From: Clostridia bacterium
GTDB taxonomy: Bacteria; Bacillota; Clostridia; Oscillospirales; Acutalibacteraceae
Direction of reading: 5' to 3'
DNA length: 33,216 bases
Assembly (NCBI GenBank): GCA_017544665.1
Contig: JAFYDS010000069.1
Location: forward strand, 1 to 33,216
Shown here: positions 811 to 22,962 of the stretch, piece after piece
Position numbering within the stretch: position 1 is the first letter of the stretch
Layout: each line of letters opens with the position of its first letter
The notes under the pieces: model-generated
What the model was told of the DNA's origin: nothing
The model's input: only the letters and a program-made list of their open reading frames with translations
Databases searched by the model: none
Program-made: the position numbers and the translations under genes

Positions 811-3800
811 TCAGGTTTTTGTTCTCCTGCGCCGGCGTCTGCCGACCGAAAGGAGCAAGCCTGTTCCGGTCAGGACAAGGATGCAGCCCAGGCAGTAGAA
901 CCACACCACGCCGATTCCGCCGACAGACGGCATCTCATAGCCCTGATGGTTCTTGACGGTGACGAGATACGTGCCGTCCTGCTGAATGATCGCGCTTGTG
1001 TAGTTTGAATCCTGCAGAACCTCAACGTTATGCGCATACACAAACAGGCGGACCGGTTCCGTCAGGCATACATAGGTGAATGGCGCGCGGGTTTCCACCA
1101 GCCGGTATTCGCCGATCGTCAGATCGCCGAGCTGCAGGATGCCGTTTTCGTCCGTTTCGCCGCTTGTGATCGCCTGTGCGTTCGGCAGCGGGGTGTTGGT
1201 ACTGTCGTCAAAATCGTTCTTATGATACAGCGAGAACTGCGCGCCGGGCAGATAGAGCGTTCCGTCCATGTTGGTCTTCAACAGCGCGATCGATTTTGTA
1301 CCGCTGTTTTCAATGGTGAAGACATACGTGCGTTCGCCGGTTTGCGGATCGTCGACCGGCGTCAGCCAGGACTGCATGGACTCGTTGTGAACCGTGATCT
1401 CGCCGTTTTCTTCCACCGTAAAGACGAGATCTTCCGACAGCGGCGTATAGCCGCGCGGCGCAACGGTCTCTTCCAGATAATAGGTTCCGGCGGACAGCCA
1501 GTCCGGGAAGCCCGTCAGGTAGCCGTCCATATCGGTCACAAGGTCGCCCATACCCTCGATGGGGAAGTAGTCCTTGCGCGGGCCGTGTACGCCCATCACC
1601 TGCGGATAGAGCGCAAAGTGTACGTCGTCCAGACCAACTGTGTGATCGGCGGCGTCCACCTTCCGAACCAGCATGGAGGTGCGGCGGTTCTTGACATACA
1701 CCGTCTGCATCCCGGAGGGATCGTCCGGTACCACGGTGACCACATCCTGCGGCGCGCCGGTCACGGTCACCGTTCCGTTGTTGAGCGTCATCGTCACGCT
1801 GTCCATCAGCGCGACATACTGGTAGGGCGGACTCTGCTCGGTCAGCGTATACGGTGCATCCGGTTCCAGATACGCGATGGTAACCAGACCGTCGGCGCCC
1901 GACTTGTACCGCGGCTGTCCGACCGGATCGCCGTTTTCGTCCTCCAATGTGAAGTAGGCGTCCGGCAGCGGGTTGCCGAGCCAGTCGGTCTTGACGATCC
2001 GGATACCCGGACGTTCGTTCGTGACGGTATCGGTCCGGATGTTCAGATTGACACCGGTGGGCTGACCGACAGTATAGCGTGCCGAATAGTCATAGTTCAC
2101 GTGGTCATTGCTGTCATACGGAATACCGCCGGATTGCAGGATGCCGCCCGGATTGACCGGCGTGATGCTGGTGTAATCTATCACGTAGCCGTCCGCGTCC
2201 ACAACCGGATCGGTCAGCACCACCTCACGTATGACATAGTCGCTGAATTCCGCGTCATCCTCCAGGTCTTCAAAGTAGTAATACAGCGAGCTGGTTGAAG
2301 CGGTATAGATGCGAATGGTGCCTTCGATCGGCTCGGACGAGCTGTCGATCTGCGGATAGATATGGCTGTTATAAACCGCGATGTAAATATCGTCGTGCGA
2401 CTGCATAAAGTCTTTGTCGGACCAGTTTTTCACTGCGGTCAGACCCCAGCCGCGCTGGTTATTGACAACGACATGCGGATTTTCGCCGTTGCGGATGGTG
2501 CCGGCATTATCCGTATCGCCTTCCGCCGGGGTATAGGAATTGTCGTCCTGTGCCCGCTCATAATTGATCAGGTTGTAGCCGCGCGGGATGTCGGAGAAGC
2601 GCTCTTCCACACAGAATTTTGTATCCCACATCAGGTTGCGGATCTCCACGGTGTAGTCCGCAGGAATCTTGTCAATCGCGCCGGAAGGCGACGTCGTAAA
2701 CGTCACCGACGCCAACTGCGATTCGGGAATCTGCGAGAAATCCGAGATACCGGTCGAGGCGAAAGAGGCCGTAGCGGCGTCATAGTAGCAGTAATTGCCG
2801 TTCGGATCCTTGACATGATACTTGTCCAGCCGGTAATAGTCGAGCGGCTCTTCGCTGCCCATATAGACACGGAAACGGAATCCTGTCGGGTCGTCTTCGT
2901 AGTGCAGCGGATAGCCATCGGCATCAAACAGCTGTTTTGTAATCAGCAGGTGGCTCAGCGAATCTTCATCGACATGGTTGTTGTAGTTGACCACTTTTCG
3001 CTTACCAATGACCTCCGGCTGCGTCTGGAAGTCCTGGAACACAGGATCGTTCGGGTCAACCGGCGTTCCTGTCAGTAAAACGTTATTTGCATGAACTGTG
3101 TCGTAAATGCTCGTGTCAATATAGCACTCCCTGACGAAGTACTCTGTCGTATCGTCCGGGAAGCGGATGTCCGCCATCTGTCCGGGCGTCAGGAAGAATA
3201 CGTTGTTATACAGATTCTCATAGCTGCTCTGATATTCCACAGGCGTCGTGGTGCCAACGTAATTCACAGACGATGCACCGGTGTACTCATAGGTGACTTC
3301 GTCGCCTTCGCCCGGAACCTCCGTACGGGAAACGGTTCTCCACTCGTTGTATTCCTTATCGAAATACCAGATCTGATACGCGAAACGGGCGTTGGAGTAT
3401 TCCTGCTTGTCGGTACCGCTGACCGTTTTTTCCAGCAGCAGCTGACCGTCGGTCGCCGTCGTCAGGTTGAAGCGCATATACAGGTTGGACATGCTCGCGC
3501 CGCGCTCCATGTAGAACATCTTCATCGTGTGCGACGAATAGTCGGGGAAGACGGAGGTGCCCGGCTTGAAGACGGTGTCGAGATAGGCTTCTACGTCAGC
3601 TTCACTCATTTCCGGATTGCGGCCCCAGTAGTTTTCTTTCACCAGCGCGCGCAGTGTGGTGGGCACAGATATTGCAGAGTTGCCGGAAGACTCCGTAGTA
3701 GACGGAATCAACACTTCGCCCGTGCTGAAGTTGATCTTGCCGACCAGCGCGGAATGGATACCGCCGAGGTCGAGGATCAGTTCGCCGTCCACATACAGCC

Positions 3801-6558
3801 ACATGTCGTCGTCGCCGGCGAACTCGAAGATAATGTCGTGTCCCCAGTCGTCGAGACCATCCGGCGGCTGGATAAAGGTTGCTTCCATCTCCATACCGAA
3901 ATGGTACTGCGCTTCCGAGACCGGAATCGAGAGCAGTTCTTCGCCGTAGCGGGGATTATCCAAAGAAATCGGATTGTTATAAACGTCTGAAATATTGACA
4001 TAATCGGAGACCAGATTCGGATTCAGATCATTGTAAGGCATGAACTGTCCGTGTCCCTGGCTTCTCGCATTGACATTGATCGTACCAAGCTGATTATAGA
4101 CCGTGAAGTCGCCATCGTCGCCGAGGGTCGCAAACGTCTGGGTACAGTCGTACTGGAAGTAGCCGCTTTCGTCGTAAACCTTCTGCAGAAACAGATGGTT
4201 TGCGTCGGTCGCGCTGCCGAAGAGATCTTCGAGCGACCGGTTGGTCAGCAGCGCCGTCGGGTAGCCGTTTGCGTCAAGATCGGTCGACACAAGATCCAGC
4301 GTCGGGAATTTCAGTGCATCACCGCTAACATAGTCGGTCCCTGCGCCGATGACGTCGGTCTGCAGGCGGTTACGGCCGCCGTTGGTGCTGGTGTTGCCGT
4401 AAACCTGGTCTGCCGGGAACTTGACCAGTTTCAGATTGATACCGTAATTATTGTTGTCCACCGTGTCTGCCGTCGTCAGTTCCTGCTGTGTCGGCTCCAT
4501 TTTCGCGAAATAGAAGGCCATACCCTGCGACATCGTCACCGGAATAATACGCTCGGTGCCGTCGGTCGCAAAGGAAGCGTAGTCATAGTGCGGATCGTCC
4601 CACGCCATGATAGTGGTATAATAGTCGTTCCAGCGCCGTCCGTTCAGTTTGACGCCGATGGTGTGGTTGTAAAGGATCTGTCCGTCCTGGATCTGCGGGG
4701 CAAGATACTTGTGAGAATAGACGTTCTGCAGTTCGTAGTAGTAGTTCGGCGTTGTGGTGCCGGGATAGTAATACTCCGTGAAGTCCCAGAGTGCCGTGTT
4801 GATCGAGCTGCCCTCCCAGCGGATCGTGTCGCCTTCGTCGTAAGCGGGGATGAGTTTGCCGTTGTGATTGACGATATAGAAATCGTATTTTTTATTCGTC
4901 TCGTTCCAGACACGGGTGTAGATCACGACCTGATCGCCGTTTGAAACTTCGTTTGCGTTGCCGGCAATACTGACCTTTTCCGCCGAGTAACTGACAAGGT
5001 CGTCCAGGTTCAGATTGGAAGGCTCTGCCAGCTTCAGCCAGCAGTTGCTGCTGGTTCCCCCACTGCCGTAGAAATAGGGGTTATTCGAGCTGCCGGCACT
5101 CGTCAGCGTACCACCCGGGCTCGTAAACTTGTAGTAGCCCAGATGACTGCCGGTACCGCTTGTGATGGTGATCTCGCAGTTTTCATCCGGCGTATCGACC
5201 AGCTGCGCGGCGTTGCCGTTGATGCGCAGATATTTTGTAACGCCGTCCACATCGATCGTGATATGATAGGTTTGTTCACCGCACAGATGGAAGCTCCACA
5301 TCGTCAGGTCGCCGTCCGTGACCAGCAGATTGCTCTCGAAATCAAGCGGATTCAAATGCAGTTGAACCGTTTCACCTGCGAGTCTGGCGCTGGTTGACGC
5401 ATACGATGTCAGCGCGTTGACGGTTATGGCGTCGGAACCGGCATACCGCACGATGCCGAAGCTCTTGCCGCTGAGACCAAATGGGTCGTCCGGCAGTTTC
5501 GTATCGTGCCACAGCGTCAGCATACTGCCGCCGGTATTATAGGTGGAGCCGGAGAAGCCTTTTCCGTTATCATCCTTACGGAGATTGAGATAGTAGGTTT
5601 TGTTGCTCTGGACAAAGGACAGATAGAATTTGTCCGGATATTGCGTACCGCAAGGCGCTATCGTCAGCGCAGTCGCCTGTGCCTGCGACGTCACAAGCTC
5701 CGCTTTGGTGTCCTTTGTCAGTTTGACATACTGCCGCACGTTGTTTGCGTCAATATAATAGAGATAGAATTGATCGTTCGTTCCCGTCACCGGCTCGAAG
5801 TAATAACGTTCCGCGCCGGCGGGGTTGTTAGCGGCTGTACGGTTGATGACATAGCCCGCATTGGAGGAGTTCACCGTTCCGGTCGTCATCCAATAGGTAT
5901 TCCCGTTGTTGCTCGTGCCGCTGATAAAGTATCCCTCGCTCCCGAGCTCATCCAGCGAATGCACAATGAGGGCGTCGTTCAAATCGTCTATGGAAGGTGC
6001 ATCCACAAGCGCATAGATTGAGAAGCCCGTTGTCTCAAAGCTGACGGTGTGGCCGTCCGTTAAGCTGTCCAGCACCTCGGGTTCCTCATCTTCGGCAAAG
6101 TGAACAACGCTCATGCCAACGTCCGGCGCCTCTTCCAGCCGGATACTCACCTCAACGCTTGTGCCTTCTGCCGGCTGATACTGTACGGTCGGGTCGTCCC
6201 TGGAAACCAGACTGATATCGAAGAACCGCGCATTTTCAATGCTGTTTTCCGAATCAAACACCGCTTCGACGCGCTCGAGATAGTCGTCGTAGGCTGCGCT
6301 GGCATAGGTCAGTTCTTCGACCTGCAGCACCGCGTCGGCCGGAATCAGCGTTTCGGCCGGGCTGAACACCTGAACCACGAAGCGTTCTCCTTTCGCGTTG
6401 GTGCAGACGCGGGCAAACGTATGGATATCTTCTTCAAACAGTTCCGCACCGCTCAGGAAAGACAGGGAGGTCAAAAGCAGAACAATGCAAAGCAGCGCCG
6501 CAATCAGGCGACGATGGAGCATACCGCGGCTATGCCGCGCAGTCATCGATACAGACAT
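811..6558 (-). CDS. Giant tip-type pilus adhesin: fibro-slime and SpaA/Cna-B domains, MPSVGG sorting signal
   Basis: This 1915-residue exported protein has a basic N-terminus and hydrophobic signal segment ending near residue 38. Next come a beta-domain of about 150 residues, lectin-like repeats rich in Tyr and Asn (about 200-700), and a fibro-slime domain (about 835-985) with the signature FAGDDDMWLYVDGELILDLG. Several Cna-B/SpaA domains follow, the last three beginning near residues 1516, 1626 and 1754, each with a TE(Q)SPP or ETxAPxGY-like E-box. The C-terminus is a sorting signal: MPSVGG near 1875, one membrane segment and a run of Arg. MPSVG departs from LPXTG at two positions. The start has a strong AAAGGAGG site at 6566-6574. 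Its size, position at the end of the pilus operon and lack of a YPKN motif fit a tip adhesin. The ligand is unknown. Confidence 0.88.
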   Translation of the reverse strand: MSVSMTARHSRGMLHRRLIAALLCIVLLLTSLSFLSGAELFEEDIHTFARVCTNAKGERFVVQVFSPAETLIPADAVLQVEELTYASAAYDDYLERVEAVFDSENSIENARFFDISLVSRDDPTVQYQPAEGTSVEVSIRLEEAPDVGMSVVHFAEDEEPEVLDSLTDGHTVSFETTGFSIYALVDAPSIDDLNDALIVHSLDELGSEGYFISGTSNNGNTYWMTTGTVNSSNAGYVINRTAANNPAGAERYYFEPVTGTNDQFYLYYIDANNVRQYVKLTKDTKAELVTSQAQATALTIAPCGTQYPDKFYLSFVQSNKTYYLNLRKDDNGKGFSGSTYNTGGSMLTLWHDTKLPDDPFGLSGKSFGIVRYAGSDAITVNALTSYASTSARLAGETVQLHLNPLDFESNLLVTDGDLTMWSFHLCGEQTYHITIDVDGVTKYLRINGNAAQLVDTPDENCEITITSGTGSHLGYYKFTSPGGTLTSAGSSNNPYFYGSGGTSSNCWLKLAEPSNLNLDDLVSYSAEKVSIAGNANEVSNGDQVVIYTRVWNETNKKYDFYIVNHNGKLIPAYDEGDTIRWEGSSINTALWDFTEYYYPGTTTPNYYYELQNVYSHKYLAPQIQDGQILYNHTIGVKLNGRRWNDYYTTIMAWDDPHYDYASFATDGTERIIPVTMSQGMAFYFAKMEPTQQELTTADTVDNNNYGINLKLVKFPADQVYGNTSTNGGRNRLQTDVIGAGTDYVSGDALKFPTLDLVSTDLDANGYPTALLTNRSLEDLFGSATDANHLFLQKVYDESGYFQYDCTQTFATLGDDGDFTVYNQLGTINVNARSQGHGQFMPYNDLNPNLVSDYVNISDVYNNPISLDNPRYGEELLSIPVSEAQYHFGMEMEATFIQPPDGLDDWGHDIIFEFAGDDDMWLYVDGELILDLGGIHSALVGKINFSTGEVLIPSTTESSGNSAISVPTTLRALVKENYWGRNPEMSEADVEAYLDTVFKPGTSVFPDYSSHTMKMFYMERGASMSNLYMRFNLTTATDGQLLLEKTVSGTDKQEYSNARFAYQIWYFDKEYNEWRTVSRTEVPGEGDEVTYEYTGASSVNYVGTTTPVEYQSSYENLYNNVFFLTPGQMADIRFPDDTTEYFVRECYIDTSIYDTVHANNVLLTGTPVDPNDPVFQDFQTQPEVIGKRKVVNYNNHVDEDSLSHLLITKQLFDADGYPLHYEDDPTGFRFRVYMGSEEPLDYYRLDKYHVKDPNGNYCYYDAATASFASTGISDFSQIPESQLASVTFTTSPSGAIDKIPADYTVEIRNLMWDTKFCVEERFSDIPRGYNLINYERAQDDNSYTPAEGDTDNAGTIRNGENPHVVVNNQRGWGLTAVKNWSDKDFMQSHDDIYIAVYNSHIYPQIDSSSEPIEGTIRIYTASTSSLYYYFEDLEDDAEFSDYVIREVVLTDPVVDADGYVIDYTSITPVNPGGILQSGGIPYDSNDHVNYDYSARYTVGQPTGVNLNIRTDTVTNERPGIRIVKTDWLGNPLPDAYFTLEDENGDPVGQPRYKSGADGLVTIAYLEPDAPYTLTEQSPPYQYVALMDSVTMTLNNGTVTVTGAPQDVVTVVPDDPSGMQTVYVKNRRTSMLVRKVDAADHTVGLDDVHFALYPQVMGVHGPRKDYFPIEGMGDLVTDMDGYLTGFPDWLSAGTYYLEETVAPRGYTPLSEDLVFTVEENGEITVHNESMQSWLTPVDDPQTGERTYVFTIENSGTKSIALLKTNMDGTLYLPGAQFSLYHKNDFDDSTNTPLPNAQAITSGETDENGILQLGDLTIGEYRLVETRAPFTYVCLTEPVRLFVYAHNVEVLQDSNYTSAIIQQDGTYLVTVKNHQGYEMPSVGGIGVVWFYCLGCILVLTGTGLLLSVGRRRRRRTKT

Positions 6559-6616: not shown

Positions 6617-6784
6617 CAGGTACCCGATGATTCATTCGGGGTGTGAAGATTGGCGAGGAAATTTAGCGTCAGATGTTACAGTAATCTCGCAGCCACCCTG
6701 TCGGTTGGCAAGAGATTTCTGTGCAAAATGGCGGGAAATATACCGCCAAGATTTGCGCGCCCGAGTGATTCAGCGGGTACCCTG
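6617..6784 (-). other. Structured intercistronic element with 24-nt imperfect inverted repeats
   Basis: The arms 6617-6640 and 6760-6784 are complementary at about 21 of 24 positions with one bulge, and they share a GGTACCCG core. Two smaller hairpins can form between them: TGGCGG/CCGCCA at 6729-6748, and a GCCAACC/GGGTGGC stem with a GACA loop (minus-strand sense). The right arm covers the last codons and stop of the sortase gene. It could be an mRNA processing or stability element, or a small inverted-repeat insertion; T-rich tracts flank both ends. I see no convincing promoter in this gap. Confidence 0.5.
6725..6748 (-). terminator. Possible weak terminator after the sortase gene
   Basis: A 6-bp GC-rich stem (6729-6734 with 6743-6748) is followed on the minus strand by only four T residues. 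It could partly uncouple the tip adhesin gene from the upstream pilus genes. The T-tract is short, so strong termination is unlikely. Confidence 0.35.
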
Positions 6785-7378
6785 TTTTTCGCAGCGCACC
6801 ACATAACGGGTGCGGCCGCCGTAGGTACAAGTGAAAAGCGTCAGATCGGCGTCGGACTGTTTGACTTCGTCGATTGCCGTAGGCTCCATCACCTCGGATG
6901 CCGTCACCTTATAGCGCGTCACAACATCGCGCACATCTTTGAAGCGGACCTCCGCGCCGACGGCGAGCCGTGACAGGCGTCCGAAGTGGCTGCGGTAGTT
7001 GTGGGCGCAGATCACAAGGTCGTTGCCGTCCGGCGTGCCCGCGTAGCGGCAGGGCGCCGTTTTGAGCTTTTGGTAGCTCCATGTTTTGCATACGGGCAGT
7101 TCCACGCCCAAAGACGGGATCGTCAGATAGCCCACATATTCATACTCCCCGATATAAACGCTGTCCATATCGTCGGGAAACACGCGCGTCCGGTCGGTCG
7201 GCGCGGCGTGGTACTCCCCTGCCGCAACCGCTTCGTCCAGTTCGGAGAGGATCTCAAATCCCGCGTTTTTCGCGTCCCAGTCGCGGTTCAGGTTATACAG
7301 CAGCAGGACGATCGCCGCAAGCAGCAGCACGCCGCCGCAGGCAATCAGGCGCTCGCCGAGTTTTCGTTTCCGGCTCAT
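6770..7378 (-). CDS. Sortase, second (non-class-C) enzyme of the pilus operon
   Basis: This is a 202-residue sortase-fold transpeptidase with an N-terminal signal anchor (about 12-30) and its catalytic domain outside the membrane. The active site is visible: His126 in AHNYRSHFG, Cys184 in LTLFTCTYGG, and an Arg a few residues later in RTRYVVR. It lacks the C-terminal membrane segment of pilin-polymerising class C sortases. It therefore probably anchors finished pili or individual LPXTG-like proteins to the wall; class B or D cannot be decided by eye. The ATG at 7378 overlaps the stop of the preceding gene (ATGA), implying translational coupling. A longer frame upstream to 7471 is only overlap with that gene. 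Its neighbour's odd MPSVGG signal raises the possibility of a dedicated substrate. Confidence 0.87.
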   Translation of the reverse strand: MSRKRKLGERLIACGGVLLLAAIVLLLYNLNRDWDAKNAGFEILSELDEAVAAGEYHAAPTDRTRVFPDDMDSVYIGEYEYVGYLTIPSLGVELPVCKTWSYQKLKTAPCRYAGTPDGNDLVICAHNYRSHFGRLSRLAVGAEVRFKDVRDVVTRYKVTASEVMEPTAIDEVKQSDADLTLFTCTYGGRTRYVVRCEKQGTR

Positions 7379-8322
7379 GGCGCATCCTCTTCCCGCTTCC
7401 CGATGCCGTACAGGATCAGCCCGCAGCAGATCAGCAGCCCTCCCACGCCCGCGCATACGGCAACCGGCCATTTCAGCTGACCCGTATTCGGCAGCTCCGG
7501 CGAGGGCGGCTGCGTGGTCGGCGGCTCAGTTTTGCTGTGGTCGGTGGTATCCTCCGGCACAGATGGTTCCGTCGTCTTTGACGGTTTCGTCGGAGTCGTC
7601 GGTTCGCTTGGGGTCGTTGACCCGGTCGGGACAGTCGGCTCGGTCGGCGTTGTGGGATTCGTCGGTGTTGTAGGATTCGTCGGCATCGTGGGGTTTGTCG
7701 GTGTTGTGGGATTTGTCGGCGTCGTAGGATTCGTCGGCGTCGTCGTTTCAGGTGGAGTGACCGGTACGGTTGGAACAGTCGGAAGAGTCGGAACCGTTGG
7801 GGTCGTCGGCACGCTCGGCACGACCGGCTGCTTCGGCGAAATGTCAACGTCATAGATCCAGTTGTCGCCGTCGCGCATCGGCACCGTTACCAAAAACGGC
7901 GGAATAACTTCGTAGCCTTCAGGCGACACCGTTTGATAGAACAGATAGACGCCCGGTTTCAGACGTTCAAACGTGGCGCGTCCGTCGTTGTTGATCCAGA
8001 CGCGTTCGGCGGTGACGCCGTGCTTCAGCGCCTCGTCACGGATCAGCTTTGCGCTCTCATAGTTGAACGCGTCCTCCGGCTTGATGGTCAGGTGAGACAG
8101 CTCCGGCACCCACTCATAGCGCAGATTGCCGGCTGCGTCGGTCTCAACCGTCGCGACGCGCATCAGCCACAAGTCTCCTCCGGGCACGGGATCGTAATCG
8201 GAGAGAATGCGGAAGCGGATGCTGCCTTCTTTCGTGAGATCCGGCGGTGCGGCGGCAAAGCCGGACAATGCACAGCAAACACACAACAGCACACAAAGCA
8301 GCAGCGCCGTTTTCCTTCGCAT
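7375..8322 (-). CDS. Wall-anchored pilin-like protein with Pro/Thr stalk and LPNTG signal (candidate basal subunit)
   Basis: The 315-residue protein has a signal peptide (about 1-24) and one globular beta-domain (about 30-165) with an SpaA-like ending (LKPGVYLFYQTVSPEGYEV). A long Pro/Thr-rich stalk follows (about 170-275) with tandem NPTTPT units, then LPNTG, a membrane helix and a short charged tail. A single domain on a wall-spanning stalk is typical of basal pilins that tether a pilus to peptidoglycan. I place the start at the ATG at 8322, because AAAGGAG ends 8 nt upstream. The in-frame GTG at 8331 would lie inside that site. The ribosome binding site overlaps the stop of the sortase C gene, and the 3' end overlaps the next sortase by 4 bp. 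Confidence 0.82.
   Translation of the reverse strand: MRRKTALLLCVLLCVCCALSGFAAAPPDLTKEGSIRFRILSDYDPVPGGDLWLMRVATVETDAAGNLRYEWVPELSHLTIKPEDAFNYESAKLIRDEALKHGVTAERVWINNDGRATFERLKPGVYLFYQTVSPEGYEVIPPFLVTVPMRDGDNWIYDVDISPKQPVVPSVPTTPTVPTLPTVPTVPVTPPETTTPTNPTTPTNPTTPTNPTMPTNPTTPTNPTTPTEPTVPTGSTTPSEPTTPTKPSKTTEPSVPEDTTDHSKTEPPTTQPPSPELPNTGQLKWPVAVCAGVGGLLICCGLILYGIGKREEDAP
7642..7746 (-). repeat. 18-bp tandem coding repeat (NPTTPT units)
   Basis: About six degenerate copies of an 18-bp unit encode Asn-Pro-Thr-Thr-Pro-Thr in the stalk of the LPNTG protein. One copy carries Met in place of a Thr. The unit is a multiple of three, so gain or loss of copies would change stalk length without breaking the frame. 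Confidence 0.85.
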
Positions 8323-8327
8323 GGATC

Positions 8328-9257
8328 TCACTCCTTTCCTTCGGTTTCTTTCTTGTCTTCTTGTATCTTAGTGTTTTCCTTTTTTTGCTTTGGTTTCTTC
8401 TTTTTGTTCCCCGGCGTTCGCAGCAGCACGAGGACAAACAGGGCCAGCAGCACCGGCGCCGCGAGGAAGACCGACACAACCGCCGTATTCACGCGCAGCG
8501 CATCGCCCGGCACGCGAATGGTTCTTGCGTCCTCAGGGGTTTCGATCCGGTGGCCGCGGACCAGCAGACGGTGCGTGTTGATGCCGTAGGGTGTGCAGGT
8601 GATCAGTGTACACAGGTCTTCGCCCGGCACGACATCGAGCGCGTCCAGTTCCTGCGGCAGCACCGTCAGGATCTGATCGACCTCATAGGTCAGCACATCG
8701 TTCAGGATGCGCAGCGAAAAGGTGTCGCCGACAAGCATCTTGTCGAGGTCGGTAAACAGTTTGGCAGAGGGAAGCCCTCTGTGCCCGGACAGAACGGTAT
8801 GGGTGTTGACGCCGCCGACCGGCAGGAAACTGCCTTCGATATGACCGACTGCGTTCTGGAGCACGGAGTCGGAGGTGCCGTGATAGATCGGCAGATAGAC
8901 GCCGAGTTTTTTGATTTCGATATAGCCCATGATGCCGGTGCCGGTCACGTCGAGAAGCTTGAAGTAGCTTTCTTTTCGCGGCTCGGGCAGGATGAGCGTA
9001 TAGCCTTCATCAAACAGCTTTTTGTTATACGCCTTCGCTTCTGCAAGCATGGCGTCGATCTTTTCCTGGTCGATCTTGCTCACCGCCTCCTGATAGCTGG
9101 AGATGGCGCGCGAGGAGTGCAGGGAATTCCAATAGTTGCTGACGCTCGGGTACAGCAGCAGGGACAGTCCCACAAGCAGAATCAATATGAAAAGAATTGA
9201 AGTCTTCAGGGAACTTGATTTTGATTTCGATTTCGATTTCTTCGGTTTCGATTTCAT
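8328..9257 (-). CDS. Class C (pilin-polymerising) sortase
   Basis: This 309-residue enzyme joins pilin subunits by transpeptidation at the outer membrane face. The class C layout is clear: an N-terminal transmembrane segment (about 17-38), a catalytic domain with His159 in LSGHRGLP and Cys221 in TLITCTPYG, the Arg in RLLVRG, and a second membrane helix (about 262-282). The usual DP(F/W) lid motif is not obvious in the segment before GIMGYIEI. Both cytoplasmic tails are very Lys-rich. The N-terminal KSKSKS run is encoded by a hexanucleotide tract at 9219-9256. AGGGAG lies 9 nt before the ATG. The gene sits between the backbone pilin and the stalked subunit, which are its likely substrates. Confidence 0.93.
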   Translation of the reverse strand: MKSKPKKSKSKSKSSSLKTSILFILILLVGLSLLLYPSVSNYWNSLHSSRAISSYQEAVSKIDQEKIDAMLAEAKAYNKKLFDEGYTLILPEPRKESYFKLLDVTGTGIMGYIEIKKLGVYLPIYHGTSDSVLQNAVGHIEGSFLPVGGVNTHTVLSGHRGLPSAKLFTDLDKMLVGDTFSLRILNDVLTYEVDQILTVLPQELDALDVVPGEDLCTLITCTPYGINTHRLLVRGHRIETPEDARTIRVPGDALRVNTAVVSVFLAAPVLLALFVLVLLRTPGNKKKKPKQKKENTKIQEDKKETEGKE

Positions 9258-9435: not shown

Positions 9436-11292
9436 TTACGCTTCTGCAGCTGCGGAGCGTCTCTTTGCGATCAGGATGATCGCAGCGCCGAGCACGAGGA
9501 CCGCGCCGACAATGTAGAAGATCGTGGTACCGATGCCGCCGGTGGAAGGCAGCTCGGAACCGGTGTTATTGACGACCTCAACAGTGTTGGCAAGGCTCTG
9601 CTGTTCAGCCGAAAGGCTGGCGTTGTTGCTCAGATCAGCCGTCCAGGGCGTAGTAAACGTGGCATCCTGGAACGCGTCACCGGTCGTTGTTGCAACTTTT
9701 CTGGTTTCCTGAGTCGAATACTGATCGCCGTACGGGAATTCGGTCTGATCCTTATCTTCCTTCGTCAGCGGGGAAACATAGATGTGAACGGGATCCTTCA
9801 CCATGTTGTAGCCGGTCGGGGCTTTCGTTTCGGTCAAAAGATAGTCGCCGCCGTCAATACCGTGAATGTGAATCAGGCCGTCCGCGCCGCTGACAAGCGT
9901 CGTTGTGGTGGTTTCCGAAGCATCCACTGCAGGTCTGTAGTAGTTGTTCGTTGCGTCATAGACAAACGCAAGCGGGTTCGTACCGTCGGAAAGGGTGAAT
10001 TCCGCGCCTTGCAGCACGTTGTCGTTGCTGTCGGTCTTGATGATATCGAACGCGTAGGTGTAAACTTCAACCGTGTGGACCACGGAGGTCTGGTTGGCAT
10101 AAGTCAGCCATGCGTCGTTTTCCTGATGCTCGGTCTTGTAGATCTTCGCAGTTTCGTTCAGCTGCGCAGAGTAAATGATCTCCACATAGTCGCCTTCGTT
10201 CATAGCGGCAACGATGTCATCGGCAATCAGAATCTCGAATGTGCAGCTGTCCGTCAATCCGGAAGTGGTCAGGGTGTAGGTGTCATCGCCCGCAGTAAGC
10301 GCTGTAGCAGTGTATTCTGTGGCGCCTTCCGCCTTTTGATAGACTTTCACGATGAAGTTGTCAGGATCCAGCGTCAGTTGGGAATCCAGCTCGTCGTGAA
10401 CGGTGATCGGCAGCGAAGTCGCCTTACCGTCAACAACAGTGATGCGGAACCACGCGTCGTCGCCGATGTCGATGTCGGTACGCTTGCTCCACGGACCTTC
10501 GTCATCGTCGGACACTTCCTTGCAGATGTAAGGAACGTCGTTCTTTTCACGGATGTGCGCAACGGGCTCGGTGGTGTCCAGAGAGCAGATCGTGCCAAGG
10601 GACGTCGTGACGAAATAGTAACCGGCGTCGAGGTCGCTGATCGTAACGGAACCGACGTTATTATCGAGATTGTTCGCCTCGTTGTGGTGCGGTGCATCCG
10701 GATCGTCGGAATTGGCAACATCCGTGTTCTCGTGATAAGCCACGTTGCCGCTCGGCGTCACAGTGCCGTCCGCGGTAAGGGTACCGAGATTTTCACTCAG
10801 ATATGCAGCGAACTCGTCCGCTTTGAATTCTTTGGCTGCATTTTCGTCAACAGCGACTGCATAGACCGTCGAATCCGCCTGGCTCGGCGTAAACGTAAGA
10901 CCGTTCACGGAAATCACGCCGTCCGCTGTGGAGGCAGCCGCATAGGTGCTGTTCATGGCAGCGGTCACAATGCTGAACCACGGGCTGGTGTTGCTGATGG
11001 TGTACGCATAGTTGCTGTGGAAGTGGGTGCCGTCTGCAGCGCCGGGAATGGTGGTCGGCGCAGTCACTGTCGGCGCGGGATCCACATCGTTCGCATAGAT
11101 CACGTCGAAGATCTTGTATGCGTTGTAGGTTTCGCCCTTCAGTGCGTTGTCGATGGTGATGGAGAAGCCGCCGTTGGCAGCGTCGTACGGTTGGTCTGTG
11201 TCAGGCGTGGGGGTGCCGCCTTCCGCGAACGCAAAGACGCTCAGCGAAAGCACCAGCATCATGCTGACAAGGATTGCTAAGAACTTTTTCAT
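9436..11292 (-). CDS. Backbone (major) pilin, isopeptide D2 and Cna-B domains, LPSTGG
   Basis: The 618-residue precursor has a signal peptide ending near residue 24 (FAFA-EGG). The N-terminal pilin domain opens with NAYKIFDVIYAN (about 55) and ends with YYFVTTSLGTICSLDTTEP, then AHIREKN. Lys250 in that IREKN lies where other pilins carry the YPKN lysine, so it is my candidate for the cross-linking residue. A fimbrial isopeptide D2-type domain follows (from WSKRTDIDIGDDAWF, about 267), then a Cna-B domain with DIIKTD and the E-box TETKAPTGYN. LPSTGG is near 580, with a membrane helix and a short tail. AAAGGA lies 9 nt before the start. Its place just before the sortase C gene and the domain order support the backbone role. 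Confidence 0.9.
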   Translation of the reverse strand: MKKFLAILVSMMLVLSLSVFAFAEGGTPTPDTDQPYDAANGGFSITIDNALKGETYNAYKIFDVIYANDVDPAPTVTAPTTIPGAADGTHFHSNYAYTISNTSPWFSIVTAAMNSTYAAASTADGVISVNGLTFTPSQADSTVYAVAVDENAAKEFKADEFAAYLSENLGTLTADGTVTPSGNVAYHENTDVANSDDPDAPHHNEANNLDNNVGSVTISDLDAGYYFVTTSLGTICSLDTTEPVAHIREKNDVPYICKEVSDDDEGPWSKRTDIDIGDDAWFRITVVDGKATSLPITVHDELDSQLTLDPDNFIVKVYQKAEGATEYTATALTAGDDTYTLTTSGLTDSCTFEILIADDIVAAMNEGDYVEIIYSAQLNETAKIYKTEHQENDAWLTYANQTSVVHTVEVYTYAFDIIKTDSNDNVLQGAEFTLSDGTNPLAFVYDATNNYYRPAVDASETTTTTLVSGADGLIHIHGIDGGDYLLTETKAPTGYNMVKDPVHIYVSPLTKEDKDQTEFPYGDQYSTQETRKVATTTGDAFQDATFTTPWTADLSNNASLSAEQQSLANTVEVVNNTGSELPSTGGIGTTIFYIVGAVLVLGAAIILIAKRRSAAAEA

Positions 11293-11458: not shown

Positions 11459-12139
11459 TTAATGAATGGCGCGGACGGTGCGCAGCGGCCAGACCGAGAA
11501 CAGCACCTTGCCCGCAATTTGTTCGCGTGTTACTGTGCCCACCGCGACGGTACGACTGTCGAGCGCTTTGGCGCGGTTGTCGGCCAGGACGAAGTAGTGT
11601 CCTTCCGGCACCTTGAACGGCAGCTCTATGTCTGTGGTGTCATAGGATTTTTCGCTGAGATACGGCTCATCGTAGTATTCCCCGTTCACAAACACATTGC
11701 CCGCTTCGTCAATGTCGAAGCTTTCGCTGCCGACGCAGACCACGCGGCGCAAGAGAATGCGGTTGTTGAAATACAACCCCACAATGTCGCCCGGTTTGTA
11801 GCTTCGCCGTTTGACCAGCGCCACGATCTCCTCCTCGCCGATGGTCGGCTCCATGCCGTTGCCATAGACCTTCATCACCGGCAGCACGAACGTGGAGATC
11901 AGTACCGCCAGCGCGGCGATCACCAGAATGGTGTAGGCGGCGGCGCGCAGGGCGCGGCGGAAACGGTACTTGCCCGATTCGCGCGCGATCTCGCGTTCGA
12001 TCTGCTGCAGGGTCGGTCTTGCGCCGTCCGGCGGTTTAGGCGGTTCGTGCGGCGGTGACGCGCGCGGCGGAGAGGCCGCGGTCTCTTCCGGCAGATCGGT
12101 CACTTCAAAGACCGGTCCGTTCCGGTTTTCTTCAAGCAT
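11459..12139 (-). CDS. Signal peptidase I homologue lacking both catalytic residues (SipA-like pilus assembly factor)
   Basis: The 226-residue protein has a Pro-rich cytoplasmic head, a membrane helix (about 70-88) and an S26-type extracellular domain. Family boxes are recognisable, but the catalytic Ser of the SMxPT box is Gly95 (YGNGMEPTI) and the catalytic Lys of the KRVI box is Arg131 (LLRRVVCVG). The GDNRxxSxDSR box is also altered, to ADNRAKALDSR. Both substitutions are clear in the DNA (GGC and CGC). Streptococcal SipA of pilus islands has likewise lost this dyad yet is needed for assembly, so a chaperone or scaffold role is inferred rather than peptide cleavage. The ATG at 12139 follows AAAGGAGG by 8-9 nt and overlaps the preceding gene by 8 bp (ATGCTTGA). 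Confidence 0.85.
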   Translation of the reverse strand: MLEENRNGPVFEVTDLPEETAASPPRASPPHEPPKPPDGARPTLQQIEREIARESGKYRFRRALRAAAYTILVIAALAVLISTFVLPVMKVYGNGMEPTIGEEEIVALVKRRSYKPGDIVGLYFNNRILLRRVVCVGSESFDIDEAGNVFVNGEYYDEPYLSEKSYDTTDIELPFKVPEGHYFVLADNRAKALDSRTVAVGTVTREQIAGKVLFSVWPLRTVRAIH

Positions 12140-12410
12140 CGCGGTTTCCTCCTTTTTCCTGCTGCGCAGCACGGCGCTGCACGTTATAGACATATTGGTC
12201 GGCGGCCTTCTGCGCTGCTTCAAAAATGCCGTTCAGCTTCAACGCAGCCTCCGCGATCGACCCGCTTTCAGCGAGCTGCAGCTCGCGTTTGCGCATCTTT
12301 TCTTCCAGCTCCTTGTTACGCGCGCGAAGCGTTTCGTTTTCGCGCTCGATCTCCAGCAGCATTTGCAAAAGCTTGCTGCGGTTCAGCCGTTTGAGTTGTT
12401 GATCTGTCAT
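12132..12410 (-). CDS. Small coiled-coil protein, first gene of the pilus operon
   Basis: The 92-residue soluble protein is highly charged. A predicted coiled coil (about 8-48) contains IERENETLRARNKELEEKMR, and an Ala-rich helix follows (SGSIAEAALKLNGIFEAAQKAA). It has no signal peptide or membrane segment. Similar small coiled-coil proteins occur upstream of pilus or signal-peptidase genes in Clostridia as I recall, sometimes mislabelled as DNA repair proteins. Their function is not known to me. GGAGA lies 7 nt before the ATG. The 8-bp overlap with the signal-peptidase homologue suggests coupled translation and perhaps a cytoplasmic partner for that protein's Pro-rich head. Confidence 0.8.
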   Translation of the reverse strand: MTDQQLKRLNRSKLLQMLLEIERENETLRARNKELEEKMRKRELQLAESGSIAEAALKLNGIFEAAQKAADQYVYNVQRRAAQQEKGGNRDA

Positions 12411-12516
12411 AACATCTTCTCCATAGAAAAATAATATAAATAATTATATATACATCGAAGTAGTCCAAAACTAACCTGAAAATGAGGATAAATAGCACTA
12501 TAATCATACAAACTAA

Positions 12517-12546
12517 ATATTAGCACAAATACAACTGTAAAGTCAA
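12517..12546 (-). promoter_or_regulatory. Sigma-A promoter of the pilus operon
   Basis: On the minus strand TTGACT (12541-12546) and TAATAT (12517-12522) are 18 bp apart in AT-rich DNA. Transcription would start near 12510, leaving an untranslated leader of about 100 nt before the coiled-coil gene. Confidence 0.8.
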
Positions 12547-13137
12547 TAGAGAAAAGTAGTTTTTTATTCCAAAATGGAACTTTTTTGGACGAAAATTATC
12601 GGCGCCGCATTTTTCTCAGAGTGAAAATAGGGTTTTTCGGAGTGAACACGAAAAAAAGGGAATCGAAGCGCATTTTGCCGGCGGTTATCGTTTGCCGTCA
12701 GAGAAGGTGGAAAAGAAGAAAAAAGCAGCCGGGCAAACATGATTTTTCGATCGCGTCCGTGCGCAGTCGAAAGCAAAAAAACGACAGCCGCCAAAGTGCT
12801 GCCGCTTTTGAAAAAAGCGTGGGATATCGTCTTCTTTTAAGTGGTATTTTTTCACTTGAAGGTTGTTTGTTCTGGCTTTTGCGTGTTCCGGGCAAAAACA
12901 TCCGGAAATACTTACATTGACTGTTCCGGCGTTTCAACACCGCCATTTGAGATACTTCTTTGCAGATACAGGTAGATTGGAGTTCCCCCTCTCCTGCTGT
13001 ATCATTGAGTCGCAGAAGGACGCCTCTCGGCTTTTCAGACGCGAAGTAAAGCGTGATTAATTTTCACGCTCAAAAAAAGAGAAATCAAGCTGCAATCCGA
13101 AGTGAGCGATTGATCTTATATTGTTATGCCAATACAG
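12547..13137. other. Intergenic stretch without a supported gene; several hairpins
   Basis: This DNA separates the divergent pilus and lipoprotein operons. The only long plus-strand frame starts at a TTG (12585), lacks a ribosome binding site and gives a basic, low-complexity product, so I do not call it. Inverted repeats are present: TTCCGG/CCGGAA around 12887-12908, an irregular stem about 12955-13017 with GATACAG (12965-12971) pairing with CTGTATC (12997-13003), and AGCGTGA/TCACGCT near 13050-13071. No promoter was found for a small RNA. Confidence 0.5.
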
Positions 13138-14048: not shown

Positions 14049-14111
14049 TCGCGTCCGGCGCCAACGCAACAACAGCAATTCCTGATGAGAGGGAAAAAGG
14101 AGAGAAAACCC

Positions 14112-15032
14112 ATGAACAAAACAAAACGGAATCGTTTCCCAAAGAGAGCCTTGGCGGTCATGCTTGTGCTGACTCTGCTGATCGGCGCCGTGCCGCTTGT
14201 CTGCGCACAGCCCGCGGAAGAAGGCTGGCTGATCTACTGCGCCAACGAGAACAGGCAAACCTTTGACGCGGTCTTTGTGGCGCCGGCGAAGTACACCCGC
14301 GTTGCCGATCGACCGCAGATCGAAACGATCTATGCCCCAGATCAGACGCAAAACAGTGTGCTGACGGCCACTGCCGAACAGATCCAGTTCTCTTTCGGCG
14401 GCAAGACCGAGACCCGCTGGACTTTGACAGCCACCTGTACGATTCCCGACGGGACCTTCTCGGGGCACACGGTGACGTGCGCCGTTTCACCCGGGAGTCT
14501 TTTGGATGACGCCGGCAACGGCAACGCGCGGATCTGGTTCGACGAAGAAGTCGAATACAGGAGCGCCGAAGGCTATGTCGATATCGACGTTTTCAGCGGT
14601 CTGCTTCAAACCGATTATGACCGCGAAGACGACACTGTTGCCGTCGGCGATACCCTGCGCGTGGAATACAGCGGTCTTTACCCCGTTGAGATCTTCGTGA
14701 ACGAACAGCAGGTCGCGGCCTTCCCCGGCGGCGAGATGCAGCAGTTCACCTTTGACGTGGCCGAAACCGGCGCGCTCAACGTCGCCGTCCGTCAGTACGG
14801 AAAAGAAATCGCGGCGAAATCGCTGACGGTCGTCACCTCGCAGGAGATGTACAAACGCAACCTGCGCGGCAGCCTGCTCCTCACCGGTGGTATCCCCACG
14901 GTCAAAGACTTTGTCGAGGTCGGCGTACCGGCCGGCAGTCTCTACATTCCCCTTTTCACTGTCGTCGCCTTTTTCGTCGAGCTCAAGGACTTCTTCCAAA
15001 GGCTGTTCTCCTTCACCCGTATTACGAAATGA
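14112..15032 (+). CDS. Exported protein with beta-sandwich regions and a shared C-terminal module
   Basis: The 306-residue product has a signal peptide (about 1-31), then two beta-rich regions: about 35-150 with TIPDGTFSGHTVTCAVSPG, and about 165-250 with an Ig-like DTLRVEYSGLYPVEIFVNEQ segment. The last about 75 residues run from AAKSLTVVTSQEMYKRNLRG to a hydrophobic/amphipathic end, LYIPLFTVVAFFVELKDFF. The same module, clearly related at DNA level, ends the frameshifted gene at 32013-32455, whose N-terminus is otherwise different. AAAGGAGA precedes the ATG at 14112; an upstream in-frame ATG at 14085 has no ribosome binding site. The function is unknown, but the C-terminal end could be a membrane or protein-interaction anchor. 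Confidence 0.75.
   Translation: MNKTKRNRFPKRALAVMLVLTLLIGAVPLVCAQPAEEGWLIYCANENRQTFDAVFVAPAKYTRVADRPQIETIYAPDQTQNSVLTATAEQIQFSFGGKTETRWTLTATCTIPDGTFSGHTVTCAVSPGSLLDDAGNGNARIWFDEEVEYRSAEGYVDIDVFSGLLQTDYDREDDTVAVGDTLRVEYSGLYPVEIFVNEQQVAAFPGGEMQQFTFDVAETGALNVAVRQYGKEIAAKSLTVVTSQEMYKRNLRGSLLLTGGIPTVKDFVEVGVPAGSLYIPLFTVVAFFVELKDFFQRLFSFTRITK
14803..15029 (+). repeat. Direct repeat copy A (C-terminal module)
   Basis: About 225 bp coding for the C-terminal module match 32221-32452, by eye around 75-80 % identity. The match includes an exact 27-nt stretch at 14988-15014. Copy A is intact in frame. Confidence 0.75.
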
Positions 15033-15144: not shown

Positions 15145-17556
15145 TTAGATACTGGCAGCGTGAGAACGCCTTTTCTTTTTCCAGATCAGCGCGCCTGCCG
15201 CAGCAAGAAGCAGCGCAGTCCCCGCCGCGTAAATCGGCACGGTACCGATACCGCCGGTGGAGGGAAGGATGCTGCCCGGGAAGTTGGCTACCTCCAGGTG
15301 ATCGGAAATCTCCACGATTTCGCTGGAGACCACTGTCACGCGGAATATCTCGTCCGAAGCGTAATAGCCTGAGGGCGCCTTGGATTCGACGACGAAGTAC
15401 GATCTGCACGGCAGCGCGGGCGACAGCACCGTACCGTTTTCATCCGTGACCAGCGTCACAAGCTCGCCGTTGTCGTCACAGACGGGCACGACGGCGTAGT
15501 CCACACCGTCCACGGTCAGGATCCTGGTATCGGTATCATCCGCCGTTGCCGGACGGTATAAGATAAACTCTGCGCCTGCCAGCACGGCCGTTTTCTGCTC
15601 TGCCTGATCGTTCCCGTCGTATTTCAGAATACTGAATTGTCCGGTCACGTTATCGGGCGGAGGCGGGGGCGGCGGAGGAGGCGGCGGTGTGACGGGCGTG
15701 TTCTTGGGATAGACGGAGACGATGTCCGTATATTCCACCGTAACAACACCCGTTTCCTCGTCCGTTTTTTCAACGGGGAAGGGAACGCTGATATAGAACG
15801 GATCTGCGGGTTCTTCCACCAGTTCCGGATTCGGCTGCTCAAGCACCATATAGCGTCCGATATCCAGCGTCAGCGACGCGTAGCCGGTTTCGTCCGTCGT
15901 GACGGTATCAACAAGATTCGCAGCAACGGCGTACTGCGTAATCTCTTCCTGCGTGGGGATATCGCTGATTGCAGCGTTTTCGGGGATTCTGTAAATATCG
16001 AACGAGATGCCGCCGATGGGCCGGCCGGTTTCCGCCGCGGTTTTATAGATGCGCAGGCCCTGTTCGATATCCTGGTTGAAAGTGAACTGACGGCTGGCGC
16101 GGATATTGGTCTTGCCTTCGGCGACGCCCACCAGCGTCTGCGAGACCTCACGTCCCTCCTGCGGCTCGTAAAGGTAAACCCCGCGTTCGAGGTTCTGCGT
16201 ACCGGACACCGTAACGGTCACGGTATCCCCCGCTTTGGCGGTGACCGTCATCGGGTATTTGTCGCGCGTGTCCGCCTGGAAGGTGGTGGTCCCGGTCACT
16301 TCGCCGAGTTCGTTCGCCGCGGTCACATTGATCCGCACGTCGTCCCCGGGCTTCACGGTGCCGTTGAGCACAACGTAAACGCCGAGCTCATATGTGTCGT
16401 TCGTGCCGCTTTGCAATTCAGCCCGCGTCACTTCCACGTTCGAAATCACAAGCTGCCGTTCTTCGGCCTGTACGCCGTCAAGCCGCGTCAGGTAGTAAAC
16501 AAGCGTATTCACGCGGTAGGCTTCTTCGGCGTCGGTCGTGATAGCGCGTTTATTTGCGGGTCTGCGGCTGCCCGTGGCGCGCCACCAGTGCGACAGCTCG
16601 TTGGAATAGTCGTGCGCCAGACGGAAAACACTGTTCAGTCCCTGGTCTATGGTGCCGCCGTACTGCATGGCGAGATCCCGTTCGGCCTCGTCGTTCATAT
16701 TGGAATAGCCCCAGATGGCCATCTGGACGCCGGCGATGATATCGCTGCGGGTCAGACTGTTAACAAAATCGGCGTTCAGCCCGCCGGCTTTCAGTTTCGC
16801 CTTCATCTCGTCAATGCTGATAAAGGGATATGCGTTCTGTACGATGGCGCGGATGTGTTCGGCGGCGCCGACAGAATAGTAACCGGCGTCTTCCAGATTC
16901 GAGCGTTTGTAATGCTCGCCGTCCTTCACTGCGGTCTTCACGTCGCAGCAGTAGGTCAGTTCATAGTTGTTTGTACCAAGCTCATAAGGACCGTCGGGGC
17001 TCCAGGTGCCGCTGTATTTGTCCGTATCCACCAGCAGGATGGTCGCGGGCATATCCAGCGCGGGAGAAACGGCCATGCTCATCTCATAAACGTAGTTGTT
17101 CTTGAAAAATGCTTCATAAGGATATTCATCCGTTGTGGTGTGCAGCGTTTTGCTGATATTGAAATTATAAACCGTTTCGGGAACAGCCGTCAGCTTTTCC
17201 ACAAGCGCCGCAGGGATCTGCGATTGCTGTTCGGGGGTAAGGGCGTCGTAGGCGTTCTGCGCGGCCAGTCGCGCGGCAGTCATTTCGGAAACATACGCGT
17301 TATAGCGGCTGCGCGCATCCTCATGCGACGCAATCACGGCAGCGTCCGTTTCGCCGAACCAAGCGTATTCGGTGGTATAGGCGCTGTTTTTTCTCATGTT
17401 CTGCATCGTCTGCAGCGAATCGATCGCCTCCAGCTGCGAGATCACAGCGTCCACCGCATCGTCCGCATACGCCACCGTCACACACATGGAAACAGTCGCC
17501 ATCAACAGAAGAAGCGCCAACACAACCGAAACCGATCTCATGATCCTCGTTTGCAC
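15145..17556 (-). CDS. Thioester-domain adhesin with pilin motif, Cna-B/SpaA domains and LPSTGG
   Basis: The 803-residue precursor has a signal peptide (about 1-31), a helical region and a thioester domain. The candidate thioester pair is Cys203 in YCCDVKT and Gln278 in GVQMAIWGYS, which together match the TQXA-type family of adhesins that bind host amines covalently. A beta-domain follows, then a Cna-B-like domain (about 500-615) ending in VSVYPKN. Lys618 there fits the canonical pilin motif for sortase C cross-linking. An 11-residue polyproline linker, a SpaA domain with ESKAPSGYY, LPSTGG and a basic tail complete it. I use the GTG at 17556, preceded by AAAGGGGGG with 9-nt spacing; ATG at 17541 is the alternative. 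No sortase gene is adjacent, so the enzymes of the pilus operon probably process it. Confidence 0.88.
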   Translation of the reverse strand: MQTRIMRSVSVVLALLLLMATVSMCVTVAYADDAVDAVISQLEAIDSLQTMQNMRKNSAYTTEYAWFGETDAAVIASHEDARSRYNAYVSEMTAARLAAQNAYDALTPEQQSQIPAALVEKLTAVPETVYNFNISKTLHTTTDEYPYEAFFKNNYVYEMSMAVSPALDMPATILLVDTDKYSGTWSPDGPYELGTNNYELTYCCDVKTAVKDGEHYKRSNLEDAGYYSVGAAEHIRAIVQNAYPFISIDEMKAKLKAGGLNADFVNSLTRSDIIAGVQMAIWGYSNMNDEAERDLAMQYGGTIDQGLNSVFRLAHDYSNELSHWWRATGSRRPANKRAITTDAEEAYRVNTLVYYLTRLDGVQAEERQLVISNVEVTRAELQSGTNDTYELGVYVVLNGTVKPGDDVRINVTAANELGEVTGTTTFQADTRDKYPMTVTAKAGDTVTVTVSGTQNLERGVYLYEPQEGREVSQTLVGVAEGKTNIRASRQFTFNQDIEQGLRIYKTAAETGRPIGGISFDIYRIPENAAISDIPTQEEITQYAVAANLVDTVTTDETGYASLTLDIGRYMVLEQPNPELVEEPADPFYISVPFPVEKTDEETGVVTVEYTDIVSVYPKNTPVTPPPPPPPPPPPDNVTGQFSILKYDGNDQAEQKTAVLAGAEFILYRPATADDTDTRILTVDGVDYAVVPVCDDNGELVTLVTDENGTVLSPALPCRSYFVVESKAPSGYYASDEIFRVTVVSSEIVEISDHLEVANFPGSILPSTGGIGTVPIYAAGTALLLAAAGALIWKKKRRSHAASI

Positions 17557-19786: not shown

Positions 19787-19812
19787 GCAATCCTGTAAGG
19801 AGGTCAACCGAA

Positions 19813-22844: not shown

Positions 22845-22908
22845 AGCACGTGGATTTGAAGGAATCAAAACCTGTCGCTTTCGCGTTGAACAAACTGTCG
22901 TTTCATTC

Positions 22909-22927
22909 GTCGGCAAAACCGACTTTT
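22909..22927 (+). terminator. Weak intrinsic terminator or attenuator between GH3 and GH78 genes
   Basis: GTCGG/CCGAC with a CAAAA loop (22909-22923) is followed by TTTT. The 5-bp stem and four T residues suggest partial termination at most. This is the second-longest gap (118 bp) of the glycan operon. Confidence 0.35.
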
Positions 22928-22962
22928 GCAATTCGTGATTAAATCAGGAAAGAGGATGAAGA

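What the first reader, a model, noticed from the sequence alone, without database searches (positions are those of the whole stretch)
11459..12139. Signal peptidase homologue with both catalytic residues lost inside a clostridial pilus operon
Gly95 replaces the Ser nucleophile (GNGMEPT) and Arg131 replaces the general-base Lys (RRVV). The DNR box is also altered, while the fold and operon position are kept. In Streptococcus pyogenes, SipA without this dyad is required for pilus assembly. This looks like a parallel case with different substitutions, and with an added Pro-rich cytoplasmic head and a coupled coiled-coil gene.
Basis: partly seen in the sequence, partly recalled or inferred. Interest (0 to 1): 0.75.

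Follow-up and report, generated by a model that had tools for sequence, protein, structure and literature searches.

The report
Dead signal peptidase in pilus operon
A bacterium's pilus operon keeps a signal-peptidase-like protein whose cutting site has decayed while the gene stayed intact, which points to a non-cutting role in building pili, as already known for one streptococcal protein.

Summary
Confirmed and extended. The gene (12139..11459, minus strand, 226 aa) is an S26 signal peptidase homologue with Gly95 and Arg131 where the Ser nucleophile and Lys base belong. Two further active-site residues are changed (Gly272-equivalent to Ala186, Ser278-equivalent to Ala192). Streptococcus pyogenes SipA, essential for pilus assembly and without detectable peptidase activity, is altered at the same four positions. 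The gene sits in the order cc-sip-pilin-class C sortase-basal pilin-sortase-adhesin; cc to second sortase recurs in five other genomes read. Of 150 similar sequences from Clostridia, 129 keep Ser/Lys, 19 lost Lys, 7 lost Ser, 5 both. In the window's genus 23 places were read: 19 Ser/Lys, two Ser/Arg, two with the same Gly/Arg/Ala/Ala set (window, G1033), so a sequencing error is very unlikely. On the tree Arg131 is shared by the window's group, while Ser was lost twice or regained. Most other conserved positions are kept and dN/dS is about 0.12-0.32 within the genus group, so the protein seems still selected. Best reading: a non-proteolytic pilus-assembly factor working like SipA, but beside a class C sortase lacking the usual lid motif. 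Orthology to SipA is unresolved and function untested. New variant of a known kind.

The parts
11459..12139 (-). sip: S26 signal-peptidase homologue, 226 aa, no Ser/Lys dyad
11855..11857 (-). codon 95, GGC (Gly) at the place of the nucleophile Ser (E. coli Ser90)
11747..11749 (-). codon 131, CGC (Arg) at the place of the general base Lys (E. coli Lys145)
11582..11584 (-). codon 186, Ala at the place of E. coli Gly272 (Asn140 in SipA)
11564..11566 (-). codon 192, Ala at the place of E. coli Ser278 (Arg145 in SipA)
11876..11941 (-). single membrane helix, residues about 67-88 (read by eye); residues 1-66, with a Pro-rich head, would be cytoplasmic
   Evidence: topology inferred, no predictor run
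12132..12410 (-). cc: 92-aa charged, coiled-coil-like protein (by eye), overlaps the start of sip; no Pfam or NCBIfam match
   Evidence: match upstream of sip in 71 of 80 named loci
9436..11292 (-). major pilin, 618 aa, SpaA domain, LPSTG anchor, no YPK motif
8328..9257 (-). class C sortase, 309 aa, without the DP-aromatic lid motif
   Evidence: NF033745, 263.7 bits, cut-off 160
7375..8331 (-). basal-type pilin, 318 aa, Pro/Thr-rich tail, LPNTG anchor; family matches only below cut-off
6770..7471 (-). second sortase, 233 aa, class not assigned
811..6558 (-). large adhesin-like protein, 1915 aa, SpaA domains; no LPxTG pattern found, C-terminal MPSVGG by eye

Best explanation
The protein is a membrane-anchored pseudo-signal-peptidase that helps build the pilus without cutting peptides. 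Shown by sequence: S26 family membership, loss of nucleophile, base and two supporting active-site residues, an intact reading frame, and retention beside pilin and sortase genes in several species. Inferred: as proposed for SipA, its peptide cleft holds a segment of a pilin (end of the signal peptide, or region of the sorting signal) at the membrane and presents it to the class C sortase. That sortase lacks the usual lid motif and may need such a partner. The cc protein and the Pro-rich head may tether the complex on the cytoplasmic side. Signal peptides would then be cut by the housekeeping LepB, which is intact in this genome (L001). Evolution: Arg131 is common to the window's group; Ser95 and Gly186 changed later or more than once.
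For: Four active-site positions changed, the same four as in SipA. The own genome (74% complete) shows one other S26 gene, with Ser/Lys intact. Survey: 21 of 150 rows lack the full dyad. Lys loss goes with loss of the Ser278 equivalent: 16 of 19 Lys-less rows have Ala there and 3 Ser; of 131 Lys-bearing rows 128 have Ser, 2 Ala, 1 a gap. cc to second sortase in the window's order is found in G1052, G1033, G1054 and G1060 and G087 (L258), all with Arg at 131. dN/dS (NG86): window-G1052 0.25, window-G1033 0.31, window-G1054 piece 0.32, G1052-G1054 piece 0.12; Ser/Arg clade L124/L127/L195 0.066-0.074. Sip tree: window + G1052 + G1054 99/97, with G1033 99/96. SipA precedent from PMC4049620 (passages, section 8, Discussion part 1).
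Against: Nothing was tested at the bench. Orthology to SipA was not shown: SipA has a very long branch and grouping it with the pilus Sips is neither supported nor rejected (p-AU 0.245). P0001 scores about equally against SipA (39.0 bits) and SpsB (41.2 bits). In pull-downs and peptide assays SipA bound neither pilin, sortase nor pilin peptides. In S. suis, deletion of SipF (intact dyad) left polymers, though weaker. The window has a class C sortase, not the class B enzyme tied to SipA. dN/dS of 0.25-0.32 at dS near 1 is only a rough sign of constraint. One orthologue (G1054) has a broken frame.
Confidence: 0.7

Rival explanations
1. A substrate-holding inhibitor or retention factor: it binds pilin signal peptides without cutting, delaying LepB cleavage so that pilins stay at the membrane near the sortase. 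The effect would be on timing, not on presentation.
For: Most conserved non-catalytic positions are kept (26 of 35 in all); a LepB is present.
Against: No binding data here; for SipA no binding to pilin or its peptides could be detected.
Confidence: 0.14
2. It is still a peptidase using other residues, for example Arg131 with a displaced nucleophile.
For: Arg at the base position occurs in 18 of 150 survey rows, 13 of them with Ser kept.
Against: No Ser, Thr or Cys in residues 93-97; Gly272 and Ser278 equivalents also gone; SipA showed no peptidase activity. No Ser/Arg signal peptidase is known to me (recalled).
Confidence: 0.06
3. A decaying gene with no function, carried along in the operon.
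For: Frame broken in one close orthologue (G1054). In the 65-row tree the end branches of P0001, L026 and L158 (1.24-1.38) exceed the Ser/Lys median (0.61); the other two double-loss rows are 1.03 (L143) and 0.57 (L235). With close relatives added the window's end branch is 0.22.
Against: Open frame, 26 of 35 conserved positions kept, dN/dS below 1 in every pair for which it could be computed, cc to second sortase kept in five other genomes.
Confidence: 0.08
4. Sequencing or assembly error.
For: The genome is a 74% complete assembly in 259 contigs.
Against: Three base changes at codon 131; the same four residues occur in G1033, and Arg131 also in G1052, G1054, G1060 and G087.
Confidence: 0.01

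Closest known systems
Streptococcus pyogenes SipA (PDB 4n31)
   Same: S26 fold family, no Ser/Lys dyad, Gly272 and Ser278 positions also changed, gene order sip - major pilin - sortase - basal pilin
   Different: Different residues (D/G/N/R there; G/R/A/A here); SipA works with a class B sortase, here class C; orthology unresolved; a cc gene precedes sip here
Streptococcus suis SipF (srtF cluster)
   Same: Pilus-cluster signal peptidase homologue beside a class C sortase
   Different: Dyad reported intact; followed by the ancillary pilin gene; its deletion left polymers, though weaker (PMC2797073 passages)
Housekeeping type I signal peptidase (LepB/SpsB)
   Same: Family and overall motifs
   Different: Catalytic residues present; the own-genome LepB (L001) lies between rplS-like and rbgA-like genes (read by eye)
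Pilus-type Ser/Lys signal peptidases of Clostridia (this survey)
   Same: cc-sip pair, pilins, class C sortase, second sortase
   Different: Dyad intact; sip is usually followed by a frame of 800 aa or more (48 of the 61 named loci that could be classed, of 80)

Membership tests
Type I signal peptidase (S26A), catalytic | S26 family by profile | tested here: met
   PF10502 and TIGR02227 above cut-off
Type I signal peptidase (S26A), catalytic | Ser nucleophile and Lys base | tested here: not met
   Gly95, Arg131
Type I signal peptidase (S26A), catalytic | Peptidase activity | not testable with these tools
   needs a bench assay
SipA (S. pyogenes pilus factor) | Dyad absent in an S26 homologue | tested here: met
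SipA (S. pyogenes pilus factor) | Gene inside a sortase pilus operon | tested here: met
SipA (S. pyogenes pilus factor) | Common descent with SipA to the exclusion of housekeeping signal peptidases | tested here: inconclusive
   p-AU 0.245, SipA end branch 2.73
SipA (S. pyogenes pilus factor) | Works with a class B pilin polymerase | tested here: not met
   the operon's sortase is class C, NF033745 263.7 bits
SipA (S. pyogenes pilus factor) | Required for pilus polymerisation | not testable with these tools
   needs gene removal
Class C sortase pilus operon | Class C sortase with LPXTG pilins | tested here: met
Class C sortase pilus operon | Lid with DP-aromatic motif in the sortase (motif recalled; lid described) | tested here: not met
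Class C sortase pilus operon | YPKN motif in the major pilin | tested here: not met
   no YPK in the 618-aa pilin

The most novel reading that the evidence does not exclude
Sip proteins, with or without a live active site, are non-cutting partners that lid-less pilin polymerases need to handle pilins without the YPKN motif. Peptidase activity is then incidental to the pilus role, which is why the dyad has decayed repeatedly in operons that still keep the gene.
Probability: 0.35. Interest if true: 0.75.

Novelty: new variant of a known kind. Interest (0 to 1): 0.6.

Why it matters
How SipA helps sortases build pili was left open when its structure was solved, and that work ties SipA to a class B sortase. 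Here natural variants (Ser/Lys, Ser/Arg, Ala/Arg, Gly/Arg) in Clostridia, three of these states within one genus, suggest that a pilus-linked signal peptidase can lose catalysis and stay under selection beside a class C sortase. That makes the question testable by comparing natural orthologues: is the shared job binding rather than cutting? The link between Sip, sortases without a lid motif and pilins without YPKN gives a concrete prediction, but so far it is a correlation with shared ancestry.

Tried and rejected
Sequencing error, pseudogene, unconventional peptidase: see rivals. Single origin of the double losses: a clade of P0001, L026 and L158 is neither supported nor rejected (p-AU 0.582); FastTree joined P0001 with L158 (SH 0.86), a mixture-model tree did not. 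Holding P0001, L026, L123 and L142 together gave a better likelihood than the free quick search (p-AU 0.768; with L059 added 0.751), in line with the sortase tree, where WIN, L258, L123, L142 and L059 (a Ser/Lys locus) group at 93/97; but the 30-row Sip tree did not put L123, L142 or L059 in the window's group. One Lys-loss event for all is therefore not shown. Window + G1033 as a clade was rejected (p-AU 0.028).

Idea that dyad loss follows from pilin-first gene order: window, G1052, G1033, G1054, G1060, G087, L123 and L028 are pilin-first, but 5 named Lys-bearing loci also have an LPXTG protein under 800 aa next, and L143, L158, L235 and the six Ser/Arg-clade loci with enough flank have a frame of 906 aa or more next. 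Dropped.

Lid correlation: DP-aromatic motif in 2 of 55 Sip-linked and 15 of 24 Sip-less sortases (Fisher p 2.5e-8). Only 3 independent pairs lie on supported branches and none goes the expected way (same call), so no tree support. Left out there: L262 (duplicate of the window), L320-L322 (weak matches), L086, L092, L243 (dropped as near-duplicates). Sip-less status was taken per genome at E <= 1e-33; G667, whose sortase resembles those of the Ser/Arg clade by eye, may be misfiled, though no sip was found in the 12 kb fetched.

YPKN: no YPK in 21 of 21 major pilins of named Sip loci, nor in the pilin-sized LPXTG proteins of four further Sip loci (L339-L342; one 1629-aa protein there has YPKK). 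YPKN in 8 of 21 Sip-less loci, where any LPXTG protein was counted, so the two counts are not strictly alike. Against a strict rule, the window's own 803-aa thioester protein, outside the operon, has YPKN.

The Lys/Ser278 coupling is a raw count (Fisher p 1.2e-16); the tree test had only two supported pairs.

Survey limits: the genome-contig scan used a pattern that requires Lys, so it served for context only. Genomic context was not checked for every survey row. In one search only places with E 3.7e-28 or better were read, plus one housekeeping gene; its list was cut. Rows dropped: L125 (same protein as L124). L117 and L118 are identical and count twice. L010 and L179 were read after an upstream stop, L011, L124, L172 and L233 up to their stop. 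In one search one of 82 named rows (L103, first hit) was a different S26-like protein, and the context counts used that wrong gene for L103. SipA tree: long branch, no answer.

Papers: PMC4049620 (outline with abstract, passages, section 8, Discussion part 1), PMC3019223, PMC2797073, PMC12984324 (passages); others only in listings. That no report on dyad-less Sip in Clostridia was seen rests, in this open-access library only.

Full report
Observation. Window 11459-12139 read on the minus strand is an open frame of 226 codons, one S26 signal peptidase domain by Pfam and NCBIfam. Against solved signal peptidases and SipA, Gly95 stands at the place of the Ser nucleophile and Arg131 at the place of the Lys base. 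The Gly just before DNR (E. coli Gly272) is Ala186 and the Ser after it (Ser278) is Ala192. In SipA the same four positions read Asp, Gly, Asn and Arg; its authors explain that Gly272 must be small only while Lys145 is there, and that Ser278 stabilises Lys145. The codons (GGC, CGC) make a simple sequencing error unlikely.

Operon. Reading down the minus strand: cc (92 aa, charged, no family match), sip, major pilin with LPSTG, class C sortase (NF033745, 263.7 bits, cut-off 160), basal-type pilin with LPNTG, a second sortase, a 1915-aa SpaA-domain adhesin-like protein. The only other S26 gene found in the own genome (74% complete) is an intact LepB.

Survey. Searches of 300, 394 and 391 genomes, partly the same ones, gave 150 sequences of the pilus type by similarity, read here with two housekeeping ones. 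Of the 150, 129 have Ser/Lys, 13 Ser/Arg, 3 Gly/Arg (window, L143, L235), 2 Ala/Arg (L026, L158), 1 Ala/Lys, 1 Gly/Lys and 1 Ser/Ser (second copy of a tandem pair, L149). Of the 19 Lys-less rows 16 have Ala at the Ser278 place and 3 Ser; of the 131 Lys-bearing rows 128 have Ser, 2 Ala and 1 a gap. The window protein departs from 9 of 35 positions conserved in at least 90% of the Ser/Lys rows; the four active-site positions are among them. In 80 named loci, chosen by a pattern that requires Lys, a cc match lies upstream in 71, a match to the window's class C sortase is seen in 35 and an LPXTG-type protein in 43. Of 21 loci with at least 3 kb downstream but no pilin, sortase or anchor detected, 15 are followed within 250 bases by a frame of 1187 aa or more, 14 of these running off the locus.

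Close relatives. In 34 genomes of the window's genus the search lists 23 places in 20 genomes, all read: 19 are Ser/Lys. The four others are the window; G1052 (67% identity) Ser/Arg/Gly/Thr; G1054, the same residues but with a broken frame; and G1033 (59%) Gly/Arg/Ala/Ala, the window's own set. G1060, in the genus of G087, is Ala/Arg like G087. G1052, G1033, G1054 and G1060 share the window's gene order from cc to the second sortase, as does G087 (L258). The adhesin follows in G1052 (as two frames, the basal pilin too), G1054 and G1060; in G1033 the contig ends first; in G087 no match to it was seen in the 6.3 kb fetched beyond the second sortase. On a mixture-model tree without the four columns, the window joins G1052 and G1054 (99/97), then G1033 (99/96), then G1060 and G087 (81/70); window plus G1033 alone is rejected (p-AU 0.028). 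So Arg131 is common to this group, and Ser95 and Gly186 were lost twice, or regained in the G1052/G1054 line. NG86 dN/dS is 0.25 (window-G1052), 0.31 (window-G1033), 0.32 (window-G1054 piece) and 0.12 (G1052-G1054 piece), and 0.066-0.074 among three near relatives of the separate Ser/Arg clade. These are rough values, yet they point to selection on a gene without the dyad.

Mechanism. SipA is needed for pilus polymerisation, shows no peptidase activity, and mutation of the Asp at the Ser place and of a nearby Lys had no visible effect. Its authors note that SipA occurs with a class B sortase, which has no lid, and with pilins without YPKN. Here the sortase is class C by profile, but the DP-aromatic lid motif is missing, as in 53 of 55 Sip-linked sortases examined; in Sip-less genomes 15 of 24 have it. 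No YPK was found in 21 of 21 major pilins of named Sip loci, whereas 8 of 21 Sip-less loci held a YPKN protein; the window's separate thioester protein does have YPKN. These patterns fit a Sip that supplies substrate recognition to a lid-less polymerase, but the tree test of the lid pattern gave no support. I hold the non-cutting assembly role at 0.7 and the lid-partner reading at 0.35.

Standing. It works like SipA as far as sequence can tell; membership in a SipA clade is unresolved, and the class B sortase feature is not met. Ten searches of an open-access library (listed in Tried and rejected) showed no report of dyad-less Sip in Clostridia, which is weak evidence of novelty. I rate it a new variant of a known kind.

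Noticed in passing
L103:3292-3996: A second kind of S26-like protein (234 aa) upstream of the sortase, with Asp at the Ser place and Ser at the aligned Lys place, in the same locus as a cc-sip pair with Ser/Lys.
   Followed up: partly
L241:9882-10475 and 10552-11145 (G568; also L149): Tandem, closely related sip genes; the first Ser/Lys, the second Ser/Ser.
   Followed up: partly
L129:6034-6621 and 12370-13017 (G125): Two sip genes in one pilus locus: a Ser/Lys copy before a 1566-aa LPXTG protein and an Ala/Lys copy before the 535-aa pilin.
   Followed up: partly
window 15145-17556 (-): 803-aa protein with thioester domain, pilin D1 domain, SpaA domains, a YPKN motif and an LPSTG anchor, apart from the pilus operon.
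   Followed up: partly
window 14085-15032 (+) and 32013-32339 (+): Two otherwise different frames share a similar C-terminal stretch (EMY-RNLR-SLL-TG), seen by eye.
   Followed up: no
window 26752-28602 (+): 616-aa frame joins a metallo-beta-lactamase-fold domain and a xylose-isomerase-like TIM barrel.
   Followed up: partly
window 19645-26584 (+): Run of GDPD, GH3, alpha-L-rhamnosidase and GH43 genes.
   Followed up: partly
L361:4647-5314 (G1054): The sip gene of this relative is split into two overlapping frames; real or assembly error not decided, not mended.
   Followed up: no
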